NCBI RefSeq assembly: GCF_032917945.1
Contig: NZ_CP136624.1
Coordinates: 4,340,001 to 4,404,000, forward strand
Reading direction: 5' to 3'
Length of the DNA: 64,000 nt
Source of the DNA: Bradyrhizobium sp. sBnM-33
GTDB taxonomy: Bacteria > Pseudomonadota > Alphaproteobacteria > Rhizobiales > Xanthobacteraceae
The translations under genes were made by a program, and so were the position numbers. This document shows positions 14,255-64,000 of this stretch, piece after piece; the first letter of the stretch is position 1; each line of letters begins with the position of its first letter. The notes below the pieces were generated by a model that was not told the origin of the DNA, made no database searches, and saw nothing but the letters and a program-made list of their open reading frames with translations.

Positions 14255-14332
14255 TTACGCCGGCACGCGGCCGCCGACAAACGGCATCAGCGCCTGGCTC
14301 GGCGTATGCGGCCGCTGGGAAGTGAAGGTCAT
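14255..14332 (-). pseudogene. Displaced 3' end of a second murI allele (26 codons with stop)
   Basis: On the minus strand these 78 bases read as 26 codons ending MPF-V-GGRVPA-stop, aligning with the last 26 codons of the intact murI at 15360-15437. The two differ at about five amino acids (T/I, Q/R, P/S, P/L, V/F) and a few third positions, and similarity ends exactly at the stop codon. Just upstream one base is gained relative to murI, and the rest of the gene is absent. The copies are in the same orientation, with a DUF336 gene and a MITE-like element between them. Confidence 0.8.
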
Positions 14333-14466
14333 CTTCGGCCTCGGCCTGATAGCTCGGGCGCTTGGCTGGCAGCGAACCATAGGGCTTTGCGACATCATTG
14401 GACATCGACGTTTTCATCCGCCCCGGTATGATCCCCTGCACAATAAAACCTAGGGAGGAGTCGAAG

Positions 14467-37286: not shown

Positions 37287-40200
37287 TCAGCGGTGCAACC
37301 ACATTCGGATGGCGAGCAGCAACTGCTCGGTATTGACGGGTTTGGCGAGATAGTCCGAAGCGCCGGCTTCGAGGCATTTCTCGCGGTCGCCCTTCATCGC
37401 CTTGGCGGTCAACGCAATGATCGGCAGGCGGCTGAAGGACGGATTTTCGCGGATCACGCCGATGGTTTGATATCCATCCATCTGCGGCATCATGATATCC
37501 ATCAGCACGATTGCGATGTTTGGGGTAGACTCGACCAGCGCAATGGCCTCGTGGCCGGTGGTCGCGGTCAGCACCTTCATCCCGCGTCGTTCTAGAACGC
37601 TTGATAGTGCGAAAATGTTGCGGGCGTCGTCGTCAACCAGAAGCGCGGTCTTGCCAACAAGATCCTCATCGGAGCTATTGAGCTTTTCGAGCATTCTCTG
37701 CTTTTCGACGGGCAATTCCGTGATCACACGGTGCAAAAACAGCGACGTTTCGTCGAGCAGGCGTTCCGGCGACTCGACGCCTTTCACCACGATGCTTCTC
37801 GCCATGGTGTGAAGTTCCGCGTCTTCCTCGGCCGAAAGTTCCCGCCCCGTGAACACCACGACCGGCACGTTCGACAGCACTTCGTCGTTGCGAAGCCGGT
37901 CGAGCACCTCGAAGCCGCTCATGTCAGGCAATCGCAGATCGAGCACGACGCAGTCGCAGGGTTGATTCCGCAGCGTCGACAATGCATCGGCGCCAGTGTC
38001 GGCGGTGAGGATCTCGATGTCGTCGTGTCCAAGCAATTCGGTGATGCTCATCTGCTCGGCGGCATTGTCCTCCACAATAAGCAGGCGCTTGCGGCGAGGT
38101 TTAGCGTATTCCTTGATTTGCGACAGCGCCGCGCTGACGCCCTCGGTCGTGGTCGGCTTGTTGACGAAGGAAAACGCGCCGCGCGCCAGCGCATGCTGGC
38201 GGTCTTCGTCGAGCGTGATGATCTGCACCGGAATGTGCCGCGTCAGCGGATTGTGCTTGAGTTGGCTCAGCACGGTCCAGCCCAGCATGTCAGGCAGGAA
38301 CACGTCGAGCGAGACCGCTGTCGGCTGGAACTGCTTGGCGAGCTCAAGGGCTTCGGCGCCGCGGCTCGCGACCAGCACCTTGAAGCCCTTGTCGCGGGCC
38401 AGATCGATCAGCACCCGCGCATAATGCGGATCGTCCTCGACGATCAGGAGGATGGTGTCTCCCGGCGCGAGGTTGAGGCGGTCGTCCGGCAATTGCTCGA
38501 CGGCCCGCTCCTGCGTTGGGGTGGCTTGCAGCGCCGGCGCGGACGTGAACGGCGACGGGGCAGCGATGCGCGGCGCGATCGTGGGGCCGGAATATTTCAG
38601 CGGCAAATAGAGCACGAAGGTGCTGCCCTTGCCGGGTGCGCTGCGCAGATGGATTTCGCCGCCGAGCAGGCTCGCGAGCTCGCGGCTGATGGCAAGGCCG
38701 AGACCGGTGCCGCCGTATTTGCGGCTGGTGCCGGCGTCCGCCTGCTGGAACGCCTCGAAGATCAGTTTCTGCTTCTCCAAGGGAATGCCGATGCCGGTAT
38801 CCGTCACCTCGAAGGCGACGACGGCGGGGGCGTGATTGAGGATCGGGTGTTCGGCGCTCCAGCCGCCGACGGCTGCCGATACGCTCAGCTTTACGCCACC
38901 CTCCGCGGTGAACTTGAACGCGTTCGACAGCAGGTTCTTCAGCACCTGCTGCAGCCGCTTGGAGTCGGTGACCATGCTGCGAGGAAGGTTCTCGTCGACA
39001 TTGATGTTGAACGAGAGGTGGCGGTTTTCGGCCTCGTGCTTGAACGGGCGGCCGACCGTCTCCAGCAGGCTCGACGTCAGGATTTCCTCGGCATCGACCG
39101 TCACCGTGCCGGATTCGATCTTCGACAGGTCGAGAATGTCGCTGATCAGGTTGAGAAGATCGGTGCCGGCGCCGTGAATGGTGCGGGCGAACTCGACCTG
39201 CTTGGCCGACAGATTGCCGTCGGGATTTTCGGTGAGCTGCTGGCCGAGGATCAGGATGCTGTTGAGCGGCGTCCGCAGCTCGTGCGACATGTTGGCGAGG
39301 AATTCGGACTTGTACTTCGATGTCAGCGCAAGTTCCGTTGCCTTTTCCTCAAGCGCGCGCCGCGCCTGTTCGATTTCCTGGTTCTTTCGTTCCACCTCGA
39401 CGTTGCGTTCGGCGAGCTGCTGGGCCTTCTGCTCGAGCTGTTCGTTGGTCTGCTGCAATTCCTTCTGCTGCGTTTGCAGTTCGCCGGCGAGCTGCTGGGA
39501 TTGCTTCAACAGACCCTCGGTCTGCATCGTGGCCTCGATCGAGTTGAGCACGATGCCGATGCTGTCGGTGAGTTGCTCCAGGAAGGTCATCTGTGACGTC
39601 GTGAACGATGAGATCGAGGAAAGCTCGATCACGGCCTTCACCTGATTCTCGAACAGCACCGGAAGCACGACGATGTTCTTCGGAATCACGCGCAGCAACG
39701 CCGAATTCACCGGCGCCGTATCGCTCGGAATGTCCGATACCAGCCGCTGGCGCTTGTCCATGGCGCATTGGCCGATCAATCCTTCACCGAACTGAACGAC
39801 CTGCGGATGCGGACGGGCGCCGTCGCCGGCGTAGGAGGAGAGCAGGTGCAATTGCGGGATGTCGGCGTTCTCGACCTGATAAATCACGCCCATATGCGCG
39901 TTGACGAGCGGCGCCAGTTCGGTCAGCAGCAGCCGGCCGACCGTGGAGAGTTCGCGCTGGCCCTGCAACATGTTGGTGAATCTTGCGAGGTTTGTCTTCA
40001 GCCAGTCCTGCTCGGTGTTCACCTGGGTGGTGAGCCGCAGGTTGCCGATCATCGTGTTGATGTTGTCTTTGAGTTCGGCGACTTCGCCGCGGGCGTCGAC
40101 CTGGATCGAGCGGGTCAGGTCGCCCTTGGTCACGGCGGTCGCCACTTCGGCGATCGCGCGCACCTGCGAGGTCAGGTTGGCGGCGAGCAGGTTGACGTTG

Positions 40201-43200
40201 CCGGTGAGATCCTTCCAGGTACCGGCCGCGCCGGGCACGTTGGCCTGGCCGCCGAGGCGTCCCTCGACGCCGACTTCGCGCGCCACGCTGGTGACCTGAT
40301 CGGCAAAGGTCGCAAGCGTCTCGGTCATGTTGTTGATGGTGTCGGCAAGGGCTGCGACTTCGCCCTTCGATTTCACCGTCAGGTTCTGCTTCAGGTCACC
40401 GTTGGCGACCGCGGTCACGACCTTGACGATGCCGCGGACCTGCTCGGTCAAGTTCGCCGCCATGAAGTTGACGGTATCGGTCAGGTCCTTCCAGGTGCCG
40501 GCGACGCCGGGGACCTGTGCCTGACCGCCGAGCTTGCCCTCGGTGCCGACCTCGCGCGCCACGCGCGTCACTTCGCCGGCAAAGGCGTTGAGCTGGTCGA
40601 CCATCGTGTTGATGGTGTTCTTCAGTTCGAGAATTTCGCCCTTCACGTCGACGGTGATCTTGCGCGACAGGTCGCCGCGGGCGACCGCCGTGGTGACTTC
40701 GGCAATGTTGCGGACCTGCGTGGTGAGGTTGGCCGCCAAGAGGTTGACGTTGTCGGTCAGATCCTTCCAGGTGCCGCCGACGCCGGGCACCACGGCCTGG
40801 CCACCGAGCCGTCCCTCGGTGCCGACCTCGCGCGCCACGCGCGTCACTTCGGCAGCGAAGGAGCGTAGCTGCTCGACCATCGTATTGAGGGTATCCTTCA
40901 GCAGCAGGATCTCGCCGCGGACGTCCACCGTGATCTTCTTGGAGAGGTCGCCGCCGGCGATGGCGGTTGCGACCTCGGCGATGTTGCGCACCTGTGCCGT
41001 CAGGTTCGAGGCCATGAAGTTGACGTTGTCGGTCAGGTCCTTCCAGGTGCCGGCGACTTCCGGCACCTGGGCTTGGCCGCCGAGCTTGCCTTCGGTGCCA
41101 ACCTCGCGCGCCACGCGCGTCACTTCCGACGCGAAGGCGTTGAGCTGGTCCACCATCGTGTTGACGGTGTTCTTCAGTTCGAGAATCTCGCCCTTGACGT
41201 CGACGGTGATCTTCTTCGACAGGTCACCCTTCGCCACCGCCGTGGTCACCTCGGCGATGTTGCGGACCTGGCCGGTAAGGTTGCCGGCCATCGAGTTGAC
41301 GTTGTCGGTGAGGTCCTTCCAGGTGCCGGCGACGCCGGGCACGTTGGCCTGGCCGCCGAGCCGCCCCTCGGTGCCGACCTCGCGCGCCACGCGGGTCACT
41401 TCGCCCGCGAAGCGGTTGAGCTGGTCGACCATCGTGTTGAGCGTTTCCTTGAGCTGCAGGATTTCGCCGCGCACGTCGACCGTGATTTTTCGCGACAGGT
41501 CGCCGCCGGCAATCGCGGTCGCCACTTCTGCGATGTTGCGGACCTGGGCGGTGAGGTTGCCCGCCATCGAATTCACGCTATCGGTCAAATCCTTCCAGGT
41601 GCCGGCGACGCCGGTCACCTGGGCCTGACCGCCGAGCTTGCCGTCGGTGCCGACTTCGCGCGCCACGCGCGTCACTTCGCTCGCAAAGGCGTTGAGCTGG
41701 TCGACCATCGTGTTCAGCGTTTCCTTCAACTGAAGGATTTCGCCTGAGACGTTCACCGTGATCTTCTTCGACAGGTCGCCCTTGGCCACCGCGGTCGCAA
41801 CCTCGGCGATGTTGCGGACCTGCCCGGTCAGGTTTGAGGCCATCGAGTTGACGCTGTCGGTGAGATCCTTCCAGGTGCCGGCGACGCCGCGCACCAGCGC
41901 CTGGCCGCCGAGCTTGCCCTCGGTGCCGACTTCGCGCGCCACGCGCGTCACTTCACCGGCGAAGGCGTTGAGCTGGTCCACCATCGTATTGATGGTGTCC
42001 TTCAGTTCCAAAATTTCGCCGCGCACGTCCACCGTGATCTTCTTCGACAGGTCGCCATTGGCGACCGCCGTTGTCACCTCGGCGATGTTGCGGACCTGCG
42101 CCGTCAGGTTGGAGGCCATCGAGTTGACGCTCTCGGTCAGGTCCTTCCAGGTGCCGGCGACGCCGAGCACGTTGGCCTGACCGCCAAGCCGTCCCTCGGT
42201 GCCGACCTCGCGCGCCACGCGCGTCACTTCGCCAGCAAATGCATTGAGCTGGTCGACCATGGTGTTGAGCGTTTCCTTCAACTGAAGGATTTCGCCCGAG
42301 ACGTTCACGGTGATCTTCTTGGAGAGGTCGCCGCCGGCAATGGCGGTCGCGACATCGGCGATGTTGCGGACCTGCGCCGTCAGGTTGGAGGCCATGAAGT
42401 TGACGTTGTCGGTGAGGTCCTTCCAGGTGCCGGCCACACCAGGCACCTGGGCCTGACCGCCGAGCTTGCCTTCGGTGCCGACCTCGCGGGCGACGCGCGT
42501 CACTTCCGATGCGAACGAGTTGAGCTGGTCGACCATCGTGTTGATGGTGTCCTTCAACTCGAGGATTTCGCCGCGGACGTCGACCGTGATCTTGCGCGAG
42601 AGGTCGCCGCGGGCGACCGCGGTGGTGACGTTGGCGATGTTGCGGACCTGTGCGGTGAGGTTGCCGCACATCGCGTTCACGGAGTCGGTGAGGTCCTTCC
42701 AGGTGCCGGCGACGCCGGGAACAATCGCCTGGCCGCCGAGCTTGCCGTCGGTGCCGACTTCGCGCGCCACGCGCGTCACTTCGGAAGCAAAGGAGCGGAG
42801 CTGGTCCACCATCGTGTTGATGGCTTCCTTGAGCTGCAGGATCTCGCCGCGGACGTCGACAGTGATCTTCTTCGACAGGTCGCCATTGGCGACCGCAATG
42901 GTAACTTCGGCGATGTTGCGAACCTGGCCGGTGAGGTTGTTGGCCATCGAGTTGACGCTCTCGGTCAGGTCTTTCCAGACGCCGGTCACTTCCGGCACCT
43001 GGGCCTGGCCGCCGAGCTTGCCCTCGGTGCCGACCTCGCGCGCCACGCGCGTCACTTCCGAGGTGAACACGCCGAGCTGCTTGATCATCGTGTTGACGAT
43101 GGTGGCAGACTGCAGAAATTCGCCGCCCAGCGGGCGGCCGTCGACGTCGAGCTTCACGGTCTGCAGCAGGTCGCCCTGTGCCACCGCAGCGACCGCGCGC

Positions 43201-43577
43201 GTGACTTCACGGGTCGGCCACAGCAGGTCGTCGATCAGCGTGTTGACGGATCCCTCCATGTCCGCCCACGAACCACTGGAGAGATCGAATTTGACGCGCT
43301 GGCGCGTCTTGCCTTCACGCCCCACCACCTGGCCGACATGCTCCAGTTGCTGCGCCATGCGCTGGTTGGCGGCGACGATTTCGTTGAAGGTATCGGCAAT
43401 CTTGCCCTCGATGCCGAGGTGATCGCCGGTCATGCGTACCGAGAAATCGCCCGCGCGCATCGCCTGCAAAGCGTGCAAAAGATCCTGCATCGGATCGGAC
43501 GTGCCGTTGGTGGGAGGTGGTTTGGATTTGGCGACCCGGCGAGCGGAGGGTGATGCTCCAGGGGAAAGATCACTCAT
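37287..43577 (-). CDS. Giant poly-HAMP hybrid histidine kinase with three receiver domains (2,096 aa)
   Basis: A very large cytoplasmic hybrid kinase with no membrane segment. Residues about 35-1190 consist of 13 canonical HAMP modules (pattern [20 protein letters not shown]) alternating with 12 HAMP-like linkers (pattern [20 protein letters not shown]). Then come a GAF-like domain (about 1215-1350), a coiled coil (about 1355-1425), HisKA with [20 protein letters not shown] near 1437, HATPase ([20 protein letters not shown]), and three receivers (about 1710-1825, 1830-1945 and 1975-2090) with [16 protein letters not shown] and [12 protein letters not shown]. The layout resembles fungal group III (Nik1-type) osmosensor kinases, which have 5-9 HAMP units. 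Length and repeat number are exceptional. Confidence 0.95.
40007..43046. repeat. Coding tandem repeat array, 276-bp period, 11 units
   Basis: Within the poly-HAMP kinase gene, a 92-codon unit is repeated eleven times at an exact 276-base spacing, for example CTCGCGCGCC at 40551 and 43035 are nine periods apart. Units are highly similar in DNA, especially around the TGGAAGGACCTGAC-encoding stretch, indicating duplication or ongoing gene conversion. Such arrays can expand or contract. Confidence 0.95.
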
Positions 43578-60559: not shown

Positions 60560-60567
60560 TAAGTTGA

Positions 60568-60664
60568 CCCTCATCCTGAGGAGCGCGCTTGCGCGCGTCT
60601 CGAAGGATGAAGGCCCGGCTCGGGCCTCATGGTTCGAGACGGCGCTGGCGCGCCTCCTCACCAT
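60568..60664. repeat. REP-like palindrome (CCTCATCCTGAGGAGCGCGC family)
   Basis: A 97-base element starting CCTCATCCTGAGGAGC and ending GCGCGCCTCCTCACC, with GCGCTTGCGCGC, and GGCCCGGCTCGGGCC as a second hairpin. It lies between the DUF4189 and DUF2000 genes. Confidence 0.82.
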
Positions 60665-60679
60665 AAGGAGCTGAGTTCA

Positions 60680-61120
60680 TTGAACGCTCAAACGTATGGT
60701 AATTCGCAAATGCAATTCGACACCAAGATCGCGGTCGTGATCCGGACCGATCTCGAGGCGTGGCAGAAGCTCAACGTCGCGTCCTTCCTCGCCGGCGGCA
60801 TCGCTGCGGCGTTTCCCGAGTGCATCGGCGAGCCCTATGGCGACGCATCGGGCACGAAATATCTATCGCTGATCGGCCAGCCGATCCTGATCTACGGCGC
60901 CGACCGCCCGGCGCTGTCCCGCGCGCTGGAACGCTCGCTTGCGCGCGACGTCACGCCTGCGGTCTATACCGAGGACATGTTCAAGACCACGCATGACGTC
61001 GCCAACCGTGAGGTGGTCAAGGGCGTGATCCGTGCCGAGCTCAATCTCGTCGGGATCGCCGTCCGTGCCGAGCGCAAGGTGATCGACAAGATCGTGGATG
61101 GGTTGAAGTTTCACAGCTAG
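60680..61120 (+). CDS. DUF2000-family protein
   Basis: A 146-residue protein of the DUF2000 group (peptidyl-tRNA hydrolase-like fold), with AVVIRTDLEAWQKLNVASFLAGGIAAAFPECIGEPYGDASGTKYLSLIGQPILI. Start is TTG 60680, with AAGGAG about 9 bases upstream; an ATG at 60710 is possible. The last 26 codons recur at 63227-63304. Function unknown. Confidence 0.87.
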   Translation: MNAQTYGNSQMQFDTKIAVVIRTDLEAWQKLNVASFLAGGIAAAFPECIGEPYGDASGTKYLSLIGQPILIYGADRPALSRALERSLARDVTPAVYTEDMFKTTHDVANREVVKGVIRAELNLVGIAVRAERKVIDKIVDGLKFHS

Positions 61121-61399
61121 GCGTTTCGAGCAAGCCTGAGCTGTTGGCCGGGCATTGTGCCATGGCGGCCTCGTTGAAGGGTGACCTCAAAGCAGCCGCC
61201 GCGCTAACCGCTGAATTGACTTGGTAAGTCAATCGTCGGACCGGACATCGTTGGTGCAGTGCTCGCCGCGCCAACAGTCGAGCTCATCGCAAGACGCTGA
61301 TCTGCCCGTCTAACCCGGCGCTGCAAGTTAAGAGAAAAGCCGAGGAACACTTGCCGTGACAGGCTTGTTCGTTCGTCGGGGCAGCACGAGGAGGCTACC

Positions 61400-62266
61400 A
61401 TGAGGACACCTCAGCTCTCCGCATTAATGTTAGCTGTTCTTACCTTCAGCGCCGGCGCCGCGGAACCTCAGAAGCTGTGGGAGGCGAGTGGCTTCAAGAA
61501 CCCCGAATCGGCGGTATTCGACCGAGCTGCGGGGGCCGTCTATGTGTCGAACGTTAACGGCGATCCGATGAAGAAGGATGGCAACGGCTTCGTTTCAAAG
61601 CTCGGGCCGGATGGAAAGGTCGTAGCAATCGAGTGGCTCAAGGGGCTCGACAGTCCGACCGGGCTCGCGCTTGCCGGTGGCAAGCTGTACGTCGCAGACG
61701 TGGACCGGATCGCGGAAATCGACCTCGCCAAGGGCGAAGTCCTGAACCGGTTCGAGGCATCCGGATCCAAGTTTTTGAACGACCTCGCGGCTGACAAGAG
61801 TGGACGGATTTACGCTTCCGATATGGTGTCAAACAGCATTTGGGTGCTCGACGGCGGCAAGCTGTCTCTCCTGATGCAGGATGACGCGCTCGAAAATCCG
61901 AACGGGCTCCTCGTCGAGGACGGCCGGCTTGTGGTTGCGTCGTGGGGCAAGATGGCCCCTGACTTCTCAACGAAGGTGCCCGGCCGCATGAAGGTGGTCG
62001 ATCTCGCGACGAAGAAAGTGTCCGATCTAGGTAGCTCGACACCAGTCGGTAATCTCGACGGCGTCGAACCCGATGGCAAGGGCGGCTATCTTGCCACCGA
62101 TTGGATGAGCGGCGGGCTATTCCGCATCGCGAGCAATGGCACAGCGACGCGCCTTCTTCCGCTCGCCAAGGGGAGTGCCGACCTCGGGATGGGACCGGAT
62201 GGGATCGTCATCATCCCGATGATGATGGAGGGCACTGTTGTGGCTTACAGGGTCGACGCACGCTGA
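61400..62266 (+). CDS. Secreted SMP-30/gluconolactonase/LRE-like beta-propeller protein
   Basis: A 288-residue protein with a signal peptide (RTPQLSALMLAVLTFSAGAAE) and a six-bladed beta-propeller of the SMP-30/gluconolactonase type: GFKNPESAVFDRAAGAVYVSNV, DSPTGLALAGGKLYVADVDR, FLNDLAADKSGRIYASDM, NPNGLLVEDGRLVVASW. Metal-binding acidic residues lie in these loops. The ATG at 61400 follows GAGGAGG. It lies between the DUF2000 gene and its stray 3' copy. Confidence 0.86.
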   Translation: MRTPQLSALMLAVLTFSAGAAEPQKLWEASGFKNPESAVFDRAAGAVYVSNVNGDPMKKDGNGFVSKLGPDGKVVAIEWLKGLDSPTGLALAGGKLYVADVDRIAEIDLAKGEVLNRFEASGSKFLNDLAADKSGRIYASDMVSNSIWVLDGGKLSLLMQDDALENPNGLLVEDGRLVVASWGKMAPDFSTKVPGRMKVVDLATKKVSDLGSSTPVGNLDGVEPDGKGGYLATDWMSGGLFRIASNGTATRLLPLAKGSADLGMGPDGIVIIPMMMEGTVVAYRVDAR

Positions 62267-62698
62267 GAATAGGAATGCGTCTGGCCTGCGCCGGGCGCGG
62301 CTTCCGATGAACTGCGCCCCGGCCCACGATAGTCAATATCATGCATGATGCCACCAACCGAGCATTCCGAACGATGCGTGAGCAATCGGTTGCCTCGTAC
62401 TGATGCGCGCGCTGAACTCAATGCCAATCGGCGTGCATATCGGAGCCGGTGGTGCGAATTGCACGCGGCAGCGACGCCCACTTGAGTACGCAGTTACCAG
62501 CGTGCCGTGCGAGCCGATTATTTTACTGGCTACCACCTCTCTCTTGGGCGCGTCGAATGCAAGGACTTGAACCTTTCTCGCCCCCGCACAAGACAAAGTG
62601 AGCGGCTGGGAGCGGTGCTCTGCGCCCGACCGCCGCCAAGAGCGAGTATGGTTTGCTTGTGGCGCCGCGTGTCTTTGGCGCCAGTTGGAGGATCAGCT
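62267..62698. other. Intergenic region, no gene seen
   Basis: A 432-base gap. Frames on either strand are short and not protein-like. I see no strong hairpin, repeat or promoter match. Confidence 0.5.
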
Positions 62699-63145
62699 AT
62701 GGCGGACGTCATTGAAATCGCAAAAGCCACCGTTACCGCATACAACAACAAGAACTGGAACGAGATGAGAGGCTTGTTGGCTGCCGACGCCGTGTATGAC
62801 GAAAAGGCAACGAGCCGTCGCTTGGAGGGCTCGAGTCAGATCATCGAAGCGCTCGAGGGTTGGGCCCAGGCATTCCCCGACTCGAAGGGGACATTCATCC
62901 GCGAGTTTGTCAGCAACGATAGCGTCATCTTGGAACTCGTATGGAAGGGCATTCACACCGGGCCGCTGCAGACGCCGACCGGTGCCATTGCGGCATCGAA
63001 CAAGCCGATCGAAGTGCCAGCTTGCGAAATCTTCCAGGTAGAAGGTGGAAAGGTCAGGAGCGCGACGCACTATTTCGACATGCTCACATTGCTGAACCAG
63101 ATCGGCGTGACCGGAGCTGCGTCGCCTGCAAAAAGCGCAGCATAG
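62699..63145 (+). CDS. SnoaL/NTF2-like protein
   Basis: A 148-residue NTF2-fold protein (ketosteroid-isomerase-like/SnoaL) with ADVIEIAKATVTAYNNKNWNEMRGLLAADAVYDE at the N-terminus and EIFQVEGGKVRSATHYFDMLTLLNQIG toward the C-terminus. Many members are enzymes on small hydrophobic ligands; here the target is unknown. ATG 62699 follows GGAGGA. It precedes a terminator-like hairpin. Confidence 0.85.
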   Translation: MADVIEIAKATVTAYNNKNWNEMRGLLAADAVYDEKATSRRLEGSSQIIEALEGWAQAFPDSKGTFIREFVSNDSVILELVWKGIHTGPLQTPTGAIAASNKPIEVPACEIFQVEGGKVRSATHYFDMLTLLNQIGVTGAASPAKSAA

Positions 63146-63174
63146 ACTGAAATATATCAACCCGAACACAGCAG

Positions 63175-63200
63175 AGCCCGCCGGTTCATCCCGGCGGGCT
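63175..63200 (+). terminator. Terminator-like hairpin after the SnoaL-like gene
   Basis: A 10-bp stem AGCCCGCCGG / CCGGCGGGCT (63175-63184, 63191-63200) with a 6-base loop. The T-run is weak (TTGAT), so it may be only partly effective. Confidence 0.6.
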
Positions 63201-63226
63201 TGATGCCTGACAACGCGGACTGCACC

Positions 63227-63304
63227 AATCTCGTCGGGCTTGCGATGCGCGCCGAGCGCAAGGTGATCGACAAGATCGTCGACGGGCTAAGGTTTCACAG
63301 CTAG
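63227..63304 (+). pseudogene. Displaced 3' end of a second DUF2000 allele (26 codons with stop)
   Basis: These 78 bases encode NLVGLAMRAERKVIDKIVDG-LRFHS-stop in a frame that aligns without gaps to the last 26 codons of the DUF2000 gene (61043-61120). The three amino-acid differences (I/L, V/M, K/R) are conservative, and most other changes are silent, so this end diverged while still under selection. Homology stops exactly at the stop codon. The rest of that gene is absent. Confidence 0.85.
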
Positions 63305-63361: not shown

Positions 63362-64000
63362 TCATAGGTTCGAATGCCTCATACGTTGCCGCGCCCGAAG
63401 GATACCGAAGGGGTCTTCGCGGCGGGCCAGCTTCCGATAGGTGGCCAGATCATCTTCCTGGAGCGCCGGTCCCTCGCCACGGCGCCCAACAGAACCCGTG
63501 CCTGGCGCCAACGGCAGCGAGGTGCCAACACCCGCATAAAGGTATCGATCGCCGTAGGCCTGCTTCAACGCTGCAAATGTCGGCTCACCGGTGCAATGGC
63601 CCGGAGCGATGTTCTCTACCTTAAATGTTTCCTTGAGCGCTGCCACGGCCTTGGCAATGATCTCGTCCGATGCGACGACGAGGTGGAAACCGCCGGCGAT
63701 CAAGCGAATTCTGGGATTGATCGCTGTCGCCGCCTCGACGATCTTTTCGATCCCAGGGTGCGCGCAGCCGACCACGAGCACAATGCCGTCCGCGGTGTTG
63801 ATGGCCAGGGACAACTCCTTGAGTTCCTTCGTGCCGGGCGTGTCGGACACAAGTGCGAGCAACGTAATGCCCGGGGCGATTTCCGTTGTCTTGTCGATAA
63901 GCTCGATGTTGGCTCCCTGCCACGCGGTACCGAACTTCATGACTTCCGGCGGCCTGCCGTCGTAGTAGCGCATCGCGGGCGGCAAGGAATCGTCCTTTCG
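63362..64000 (-). CDS. MBL-fold metallo-hydrolase (partial, runs off the right edge)
   Basis: The visible 212 codons are the C-terminal part of a metallo-beta-lactamase-fold protein of the RFA-P-synthase-like (MJ0296) group, with LVVGCAHPGIEKIVEAA near the visible residue 75, IAGGFHLV and the metal-ligand-type segment IAPGHCTGEPTFAALKQAYG. The N-terminal HxHxDH motif lies beyond the window. The last 45 residues after YAGVGTSLPL (PGTGSVGRRGEGPALQED...) look unlike the family and may follow a frameshift near the end. Confidence 0.82.
   Translation of the reverse strand, partial: RKDDSLPPAMRYYDGRPPEVMKFGTAWQGANIELIDKTTEIAPGITLLALVSDTPGTKELKELSLAINTADGIVLVVGCAHPGIEKIVEAATAINPRIRLIAGGFHLVVASDEIIAKAVAALKETFKVENIAPGHCTGEPTFAALKQAYGDRYLYAGVGTSLPLAPGTGSVGRRGEGPALQEDDLATYRKLARREDPFGILRARQRMRHSNL

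What the first reader, a model, noticed from the sequence alone, without database searches (positions are those of the whole stretch)
60680..63304. The same architecture at a second gene: DUF2000 3' end repeated beyond two cargo genes
Seen: the last 26 codons of the DUF2000 gene (61043-61120) recur at 63227-63304 in frame, with three conservative substitutions and mostly silent differences, ending at the stop codon. An SMP-30-like and a SnoaL-like gene lie between. It matches the murI case in orientation, in length of homology (78 bases) and in homology ending at the stop. Two cases in one window suggest a recurrent process of 3'-end-targeted insertion, carrying small accessory genes, not previously connected with these targets as far as I know.
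Basis: partly seen in the sequence, partly recalled or inferred. Interest (0 to 1): 0.78.

Follow-up and report, generated by a model that had tools for sequence, protein, structure and literature searches.

The report
Displaced gene ends mark acquired genes
In this soil bacterium, imported DNA seems to have repeatedly replaced the tail of an ordinary gene and brought new neighbour genes with it, pushing the old tail downstream as a fossil, so the order of gene gains may be readable from a single genome.

Summary
The last 78-79 bp of a DUF2000 gene recur in frame at 63226-63304 (86%), beyond an SMP-30-like and a SnoaL-like gene. About 20 same-genus genomes carry such tails downstream of DUF2000, with varying cargo and order; none was found upstream.
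It is not confined to DUF2000 and murI. In 1.68 Mb of this genome, 10 genes have a partial 3'-end copy in intergenic (or fragment) sequence downstream, none upstream; there are 1-3 mirror 5' cases and none from gene interiors. Relatives show the unoccupied site for three genes.
At DUF2000, main and displaced tails have different origins, which argues against local duplication. At an RND-pump-like gene two relatives end in another C-terminal variant while the common type, with its flank, sits about 6.5 and 13.6 kb downstream. No tyrosine or serine recombinase gene lies in the 879-kb stretch holding seven of the ten genes, and no junction motif is shared.
Best explanation: homology-anchored insertion with displacement, as proposed for T6SS, CDI and Rhs arrays, here at ordinary genes. 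'Targeted' insertion is not supported.

The parts
60710..61120 (+). DUF2000 gene (136 aa from the conserved ATG; the open frame starts at 60629): anchor gene, intact
   Evidence: PF09391 E 1.8e-39; its 3' end matches in 137 of 146 genomes of the genus, G000 included
61042..61120 (+). 3' end of the main gene; differs from the displaced copies and is read as the newest, imported end
   Evidence: identity to other species' gene ends
61121..62266 (+). module next to the gene: leader plus SMP-30-like gene (61400-62266)
   Evidence: PF08450; the same module starts at the base after the stop in several genomes
62333..62360 (+). decayed left part of a displaced DUF2000 3' end (aligns with main 60981-61008)
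   Evidence: alignment score 16 against a maximum of 13 in 500 shuffles; aligns with the junction of the intact copy in L038
62699..63145 (+). second module: SnoaL-like gene
   Evidence: PF07366 E 1.3e-22
63226..63304 (+). displaced DUF2000 3' end, copy 2 (79 bp, 86%)
   Evidence: at least as close to 72 of 106 other DUF2000 genes as to the gene next door
63362..64000 (-). third module: metallo-beta-lactamase-fold gene, continues to window-equivalent 64408 (L004:4362-5408)
   Evidence: PF00753
   Evidence: empty site in L140
14398..14934 (+). cargo of the murI case: HbpS-like gene
   Evidence: PF03928 E 2.5e-36
14255..14354 (-). displaced murI 3' end (100 bp, 85%)
   Evidence: followed by the flank that adjoins murI directly in G052

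Best explanation
Sequential displacement of gene 3' ends by incoming homologous DNA. A donor fragment carrying the 3' part of the same gene plus the donor's downstream genes pairs with the recipient gene body (homology anchor). Its far end, which has no homology, is joined just inside the recipient's own 3' end, roughly 50-300 bp before the stop. The gene stays intact but now ends with the donor's 3' end and is followed by the donor's genes; the recipient's old 3' end and everything after it are pushed downstream as a non-coding remnant. Repetition stacks modules, the newest next to the gene. Shown: unoccupied sites at three genes, displaced ends that keep a flank which adjoins the gene elsewhere, different origins of main and displaced ends, no tyrosine or serine recombinase gene near most cases. 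Inferred: that the anchored exchange is RecA-type homologous recombination, that the other end is joined illegitimately (homology-facilitated illegitimate recombination, possibly helped by Ku/NHEJ), and that the 3' bias comes from selection against insertions that disturb promoters.
For: Copies reach within 7 bp of the stop in 18 of 41 fetched loci (22 copies, one weak) and in 12 of 80 named loci (15 copies), each downstream; the sets overlap and give about 20 genomes. Unoccupied sites: at the RND-like gene, the 200-225 bp that follow the displaced copy follow the gene's own stop directly in 11 of 30 loci, and this flank is not a dispersed repeat in the 1.68 Mb; murI at +3 over 1.5 kb, 90.8%, in 1 of 30 loci; SnoaL-like gene at +10 to +13 in 3 of 29 loci, two of them over about 1.5 kb. 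G039 and G103: RND-like gene with another C-terminal variant, the common type and its flank about 13.6 and 6.5 kb downstream. The two G000 copies are at least as close to 72 and 80 of 106 other DUF2000 genes as to the adjacent one. The flank after G000 copy 3 matches the flank after the main gene in L061 (score 24, null maximum 14). Module order differs (MBL before SMP-30 in L048). No PF00589 match between 3.97 and 5.43 Mb and no PF00239 match between 3.94 and 9.11 Mb; no shared motif. Five Ku loci. Interior control: no intergenic copies from 633 kb of gene interiors.
Against: No donor allele (gene plus cargo without a copy) was identified, so the illegitimate junction and any microhomology were not seen. 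Simple illegitimate joining does not predict that nearly all copies begin within about 210 bp of the stop. The left junction of the RND copy is at the same base in G000/G039 and in G103 although the flanks differ. In G000 itself the RND main end is not clearly foreign (0.929 against 0.922 to G057), and which C-terminal type is ancestral is inferred from the relatives. Part of the RND flank also lies behind the G039 main gene and a second time behind its copy. The displaced L046 copy matches G000's gene end (0.923) no better than at least five other genes. The comparison is ungapped; the L057 row is unusable for that reason. At murI, five of 30 loci lack the first part of the G000 flank and join further downstream, so that flank is itself variable. 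DUF2000 is far hotter than its neighbours (20 of 20 intergenic 3'-downstream copies in a DUF2000-centred sample), which a generic mechanism does not explain. For the TetR-like gene B275685 no empty site was found. Natural competence and other recombinase families were not tested.
Confidence: 0.7

Rival explanations
1. Site-specific integration: small integrative elements (integrase lost or supplied in trans) use gene 3' ends as attachment sites and carry a replacement end; stacked elements give the array.
For: Exact stop-codon boundary, replacement of the gene end, direct repeats of att-like length and stacking are the anatomy of 3'-end integration. G000 encodes many tyrosine integrases elsewhere (43 PF00589 matches).
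Against: Ten different gene ends and no shared motif; no PF00589 or PF00239 match within the 879-kb stretch with seven of the ten genes; one weak PF00589 match (28.5 bits) about 98 kb from the nearest gene of segment B; the cargo annotated is small metabolic or regulatory genes; measured repeat length varies from 46 to 207 bp; at C10143 the repeat runs into the next gene.
Confidence: 0.13
2. Campbell-type homologous integration of circles that carry a gene 3' end plus cargo, including circles released by recombination between existing copies; a recombinase-free cassette cycle.
For: Gives the same product. Flanking direct repeats of 75-140 bp would allow excision and re-integration; the SMP-30 module adjoins the stop in several genomes and its order relative to MBL differs.
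Against: No circle was looked for or seen; the origin of the cargo-to-3'-end junction still needs an illegitimate step; shared junctions may simply be inherited.
Confidence: 0.1
3. Local tandem duplication of gene plus neighbour followed by deletion, leaving 3' scraps.
For: Some copies are longer and partly deleted (murI copies in G039 and G038/G087); 8 of 21 DUF2000 copies examined have gaps.
Against: DUF2000 copies are often closer to other species' genes than to the gene beside them; a flank that adjoins the gene in relatives follows the copy; no upstream copies and no full-length duplicates at DUF2000 in the loci held.
Confidence: 0.05
4. Chance similarity or a dispersed repeat family.
For: Some intergenic repeats exist in the genome, and ten named loci show 42-50 bp internal matches several kb away.
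Against: E values of about 1e-20 to 1e-34 for the DUF2000 copies, phase with the stop codon; the interior control gave no intergenic copies; the flanks tested are single-copy or nearly so in the scanned sequence.
Confidence: 0.01

Closest known systems
Sequential displacement of T6SS effector genes in Vibrio cholerae (Kirchberger et al. 2017, PMC5361080; passages read)
   Same: Incoming DNA anchored by homology, new 3' part plus new downstream gene, old parts shifted downstream, successive events stacking; the authors propose a mechanism akin to homology-facilitated illegitimate recombination and compare it with integron cassette addition.
   Different: There the anchor region belongs to a toxin cluster and the retained genes are immunity genes. 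Here anchors are ordinary genes (DUF2000, murI, an RND-like pump gene and others), the cargo annotated has no evident link to the anchor, and the displaced end is a non-coding scrap.
Orphan CdiA-CT/CdiI modules in Acinetobacter, and Rhs (PMC6336857; passages read)
   Same: 3' remnants of the gene displaced stepwise in the 5'-3' direction by incoming sequence.
   Different: Variable toxin tips thought to be kept for use; here the end mostly keeps the same protein family and the neighbours change.
[quoted passage not shown] 2017, PMC5635113; passages read)
   Same: Accessory gene turnover between core genes without integrases, attributed to recombination in flanking core genes.
   Different: Their model is double recombination in both flanking genes, which leaves no displaced end. 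Here a one-sided product leaves a scar.
Homology-facilitated illegitimate recombination (PMC2884548, passages read; PMC3240628, start of abstract in the search listing only)
   Same: One homologous end, one illegitimate end.
   Different: Laboratory events and small variable segments; the passages seen do not describe a set of gene-3'-end displacements.
Genomic islands integrated in gene 3' ends; integron cassette arrays (general knowledge, recalled)
   Same: Gene end restored by the element, displaced end downstream; newest module next to the anchor.
   Different: No integrase nearby and no common site found; the two ends folded show no unusual structure.

Membership tests
Sequential displacement by homology-anchored insertion (as in T6SS/CDI/Rhs arrays) | Old 3' end with its native flank lies downstream of new genes; gene carries a different end | tested here: met
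   RND-like gene in G039 and G103; flank evidence at murI, the SnoaL-like gene and DUF2000
Sequential displacement by homology-anchored insertion (as in T6SS/CDI/Rhs arrays) | Stacking of successive insertions | tested here: met
   Three modules in G000, four in L046; L058 and L039 hold sub-states
Sequential displacement by homology-anchored insertion (as in T6SS/CDI/Rhs arrays) | Illegitimate junction with little or no homology at the far end | tested here: inconclusive
   No common junction motif, but no donor allele found, so microhomology was not measured
Sequential displacement by homology-anchored insertion (as in T6SS/CDI/Rhs arrays) | Toxin or effector anchor with immunity cargo | tested here: not met
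   The anchors and cargo annotated are metabolic, transport or regulatory genes; PADLOC gave one weak MBL-domain match among 10 proteins
Integrative element / genomic island at a gene 3' end | Integrase in or near the element | tested here: not met
   G000: no PF00589 match between 3,966,829 and 5,436,791 and no PF00239 match between 3,937,549 and 9,113,805, which covers seven of ten genes; segment B has one weak PF00589 match about 98 kb from its nearest gene; other recombinase families not searched
Integrative element / genomic island at a gene 3' end | Gene end restored, direct repeat ends at the gene's end | tested here: met
   C10143 is an exception, where the repeat runs into the next gene
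Integron cassette array | attC sites that fold, with shared core sites | tested here: not met
   Fold z-scores 1.34 and 0.12 for the two strands of the main DUF2000 end, -0.70 and 0.72 for those of the displaced murI end; no shared motif
Local tandem duplication | Copies are each other's closest relatives | tested here: not met
   In each of 15 DUF2000 copies compared, at least one other species' gene end is as close as, or closer than, the adjacent gene's (two ties; ungapped, so the gapped L057 copy does not count)

The most novel reading that the evidence does not exclude
Gene 3' ends act as generic, self-renewing docking points for gene cassettes: each arrival regenerates an intact end next to the gene and leaves a direct repeat, so modules can later be lost, exchanged or re-inserted by ordinary homologous recombination. 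This would be an integron-like accretion system without an integrase or dedicated site, working at dozens of ordinary genes per genome (10 loci in 1.68 Mb, extrapolated to roughly 55 in 9.18 Mb) and leaving a readable record of acquisition order.
Probability: 0.25. Interest if true: 0.82.

Novelty: new variant of a known kind. Interest (0 to 1): 0.62.

Why it matters
Many strain-specific genes in bacteria sit between core genes with no mobile element nearby, and how they arrived usually cannot be read. A displaced 3' end is a scar of one defined event: it tells that the neighbours were imported, which gene served as anchor, in which order modules arrived, and that the anchor gene's own C-terminus may be foreign. 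If it holds across genomes, acquisition histories could be reconstructed from single genomes, and the relative weight of one-sided against double recombination becomes countable. It also warns that a housekeeping gene's last 50-150 bp may have another ancestry than the rest.

Tried and rejected
Chance or dispersed repeats: rejected. Recurrent 42-50 bp matches to DUF2000 positions about -69..-24 or -202..-156 in ten named loci (11 hits), and similar short ones in five unnamed loci (L067, L068, L072, L073, L075), do not reach the stop and were not counted. I inspected nine of the 11 hits, in eight loci: the longest open frame over each was 242 aa or more, and in four it reads like a GntR-type helix (name recalled, not searched); open frames are weak evidence in GC-rich DNA.

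Integron-like fold: not significant. Defence cargo: none beyond a weak MBL-domain match. SMP-30 in other places: four genomes hold it elsewhere with homology from about 56-71 bases before the start to the stop only; no flanking 3'-end repeat of comparable strength within 1.5 kb, so no donor allele was recognised.

Rows dropped before counts., 3'-downstream: 20 rows; 8 dropped because the target lies in a predicted gene (paralogues or repeat-rich regions) and A446480 because it is an internal tandem repeat; 11 copies in 10 genes kept, including B275685, whose target is a 72-aa fragment. Two kept cases are weak: A207330 (46 bp) and A771316 (80 bp, 78%). 3'-upstream: 8 rows, all with targets in predicted genes. 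5': 5 upstream rows, 3 intergenic (C177432 lies in what looks like an intergenic repeat, C70603 is only 36 bp, A769329 is convincing); 4 downstream rows, 1 intergenic (A326767, which extends beyond the gene). Matches of 395 bp or more were left out; those ending within 20 bp of a gene end are listed and were not followed up. A698004 (3' end plus terminator) did not appear and is not counted. L059 ends 8 bp short of the stop and is not counted; L045 (66 bp, 77%) is counted but was left out.

Not done: a second whole-genome control; searches for recombinase families other than PF00589 and PF00239. Gene calls come from my own ORF scoring, not a published gene finder.
Full report
WHAT IS THERE. 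The DUF2000 gene at 60710-61120 ends with a 79-bp stretch that recurs at 63226-63304, 86% identical and ending at the stop codon. A search of the whole genome found a third copy outside the window at G000:C1 4404770-4404881 (112 bp, 87.5%). Between copies lie an SMP-30-like gene and a SnoaL-like gene, and then an MBL-fold gene on the minus strand. A 28-bp remnant of yet another copy follows the SMP-30 gene at 62333-62360. The locus is therefore read as the main gene followed by three modules, each closed by a copy, or a remnant, of the gene's 3' end.

IT RECURS AT THIS GENE. Of 146 genomes of the genus (G000 included), 137 have a match to the DUF2000 3' end (its list of matches was cut). I fetched 40 loci from 39 of these genomes, chosen mainly for multiple or strong matches and so not a random sample, plus G000. 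Of these 41 loci, 18 carry downstream copies reaching within 7 bp of the stop, 22 copies in all (one, in L045, is weak); one search covered the plus strand only. In the 21 copies re-examined the left ends lie 55-143 bp before the stop. In 80 named loci 12 carry 15 such copies, none upstream and none inverted. Together they give about 20 genomes; many of the named ones are B. jicamae, lablabi, valentinum, retamae, murdochi and relatives. Cargo includes SMP-30, SnoaL, MBL, GNAT, alcohol dehydrogenase, family-4 glycosidase and a MASE1 sensor kinase. Order varies: SMP-30, SnoaL, MBL in G000; a GNAT module in front of these in L046; MBL before SMP-30 in L048; SMP-30 without MBL in L039, L044, L050 and L057; MBL without SMP-30 in L058. 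In L049 and L064 the gene is followed within 9 bp by the yedY-like gene region (name recalled, not searched) that elsewhere lies beyond the array. Eight of 21 copies contain gaps: they decay like non-coding DNA.

IT RECURS AT OTHER GENES. A per-gene scan of 1.679 Mb of G000 (1457 predicted genes, 12 kb either side) gave 3'-end partial copies downstream on the same strand, in intergenic or fragment sequence, at 10 genes (11 copies), none upstream, and three 5'-end cases upstream, of which one is convincing. Taking 10 against 1, or 10 against 3, the one-sided binomial is about 0.006 or 0.046 (hand arithmetic). As a control, 633 kb of gene interiors from 677 genes gave no intergenic copies. Besides DUF2000 and murI, anchors include an RND-like pump gene (154 bp, 89%), a SnoaL-like gene (77 bp, 82%; cargo a glutamine synthetase, PF00120), a TetR-like gene (207 bp, 94%), a 117-aa gene (91 bp, 90%) and C10143, where a 649-bp block covers the 3' end and the start of the next gene. 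The names RND, TetR and SnoaL for these three anchors are read by eye and were not searched. In a DUF2000-centred sample of 86 non-redundant loci (1770 genes) all 20 intergenic 3'-downstream copies belong to DUF2000; the same scan gave one 3'-upstream, two 5'-upstream and two 5'-downstream rows. Rates differ strongly between genes.

UNOCCUPIED SITES AND DISPLACEMENT. At the RND-like gene, the 200-225 bp that follow the displaced copy in G000 follow the gene's own stop, from the very next base (in one locus from the sixth), in 11 of 30 loci; beyond that the loci differ. This flank has only weak matches elsewhere in the 1.68 Mb, though part of it also lies behind the main gene and a second time behind the copy in G039. 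At murI, one of 30 loci (G052) has the G000 post-copy flank starting 3 bases after the stop, 90.8% over 1.5 kb; G057 carries the same HbpS cassette, a 101-bp copy, and then that flank; two further loci (G120, G099) have cassette and flank without a detectable copy; in five loci (L147, L150, L162, L164, L165) murI is followed by the flank only from about its base 1209 on, so the flank itself varies. At the SnoaL-like gene three of 29 loci show the flank 10-13 bases after the stop, two of them over about 1.5 kb. For the TetR-like gene no empty site was seen; 8 of 15 loci carry the same insert. At DUF2000, the flank behind G000 copy 3 matches the flank behind the main gene in L061 (score 24, null maximum 14; next best 16), while the flank behind the G000 main gene does not (score 8). 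In G039 and G103 the RND-like gene ends with a C-terminal variant unlike that of the clean relatives, and the end of the clean type with its flank lies about 13.6 and 6.5 kb downstream. That the clean type is ancestral is inferred from the relatives.

ORIGIN OF THE COPIES. The two G000 copies are at least as close to 72 and 80 of 106 other DUF2000 gene ends as to the end of the adjacent gene, and for each of the 15 copies compared some other species' gene is at least as close (two are ties; the comparison is ungapped, which makes the L057 row unusable). This argues against local duplication. It also explains the mostly silent differences: both ends were parts of working genes in different lineages before they met. 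The evidence from L046 is weaker: its first displaced end matches the G000 main end at 0.923, but at least five other genes tie.

MECHANISM. The product is that of a one-sided homologous event: exchange in the gene body, import of the donor end and its neighbours, and joining of the far end inside the recipient's 3' end. No PF00589 or PF00239 match lies within the 879-kb stretch with seven of the ten genes; segment B has one weak PF00589 match about 98 kb from its nearest gene, segment C none. There is no shared motif at the junctions, and the two ends folded show no special structure. Five Ku loci over the curated cut-off, two of them matched in two pieces, make end joining plausible. Homology-facilitated illegitimate recombination is the named process that fits best; that it was the process here is inferred. 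The clustering of junctions within about 210 bp of the stop, the shared junction base at the RND-like gene and the exceptional activity at DUF2000 are not explained.

KNOWN OR NEW. The same displacement logic has been proposed for T6SS effector-immunity arrays (PMC5361080, passages), CDI orphan modules (PMC6336857, passages) and, as cited in the first, Rhs loci. Hotspots without mobile elements and with recombination at flanking core genes are known (PMC5635113, passages), as are additive transfers by flanking homology (PMC11375855, passages) and transformation-driven duplications (PMC3784515, passages). Judged by titles and starts of abstracts, none of the papers listed by my searches describes displaced 3' ends at ordinary genes as a genome-wide signature; these searches cover open-licence papers only. 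I file it as a new variant of a known kind.

Noticed in passing
window 40080-43155: An array of eleven 276-bp repeats inside a 2096-aa reading frame (37287-43577, minus strand), probably a large repeat protein.
   Followed up: no
L054:13768-15282: A 216-bp, 91% direct repeat that covers a whole 71-aa frame with a copy upstream; the only 3'-upstream row in the 86-locus scan.
   Followed up: no
G000:C1 7002881-7010217: A 649-bp, 94% displaced block made of one gene's 3' end and the 5' part of the next gene, beyond about 6 kb of other genes.
   Followed up: partly
RND-like gene in G000, G039 and G103 (G000:C1 1040970): The displaced copy begins at the same base in G000/G039 and in G103 although the sequences to its left are unrelated.
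   Followed up: no
L138, L142, L146 (murI loci of G039, G038, G087): After the HbpS gene these have a different murI copy (203 aligned columns, or only positions -298 to -236), so the same cargo met more than one displaced end or the copies decayed differently.
   Followed up: partly
G000:C1 5108652-5108734: A mirror case: the 5' end of a methyltransferase-like gene (5109329-5110207; name read by eye) repeated 0.7 kb upstream.
   Followed up: no
window 60560-60680: By eye, an intergenic repeat just upstream of DUF2000 resembles a dispersed element also seen at G000:C1 5186180 and 5191100.
   Followed up: no
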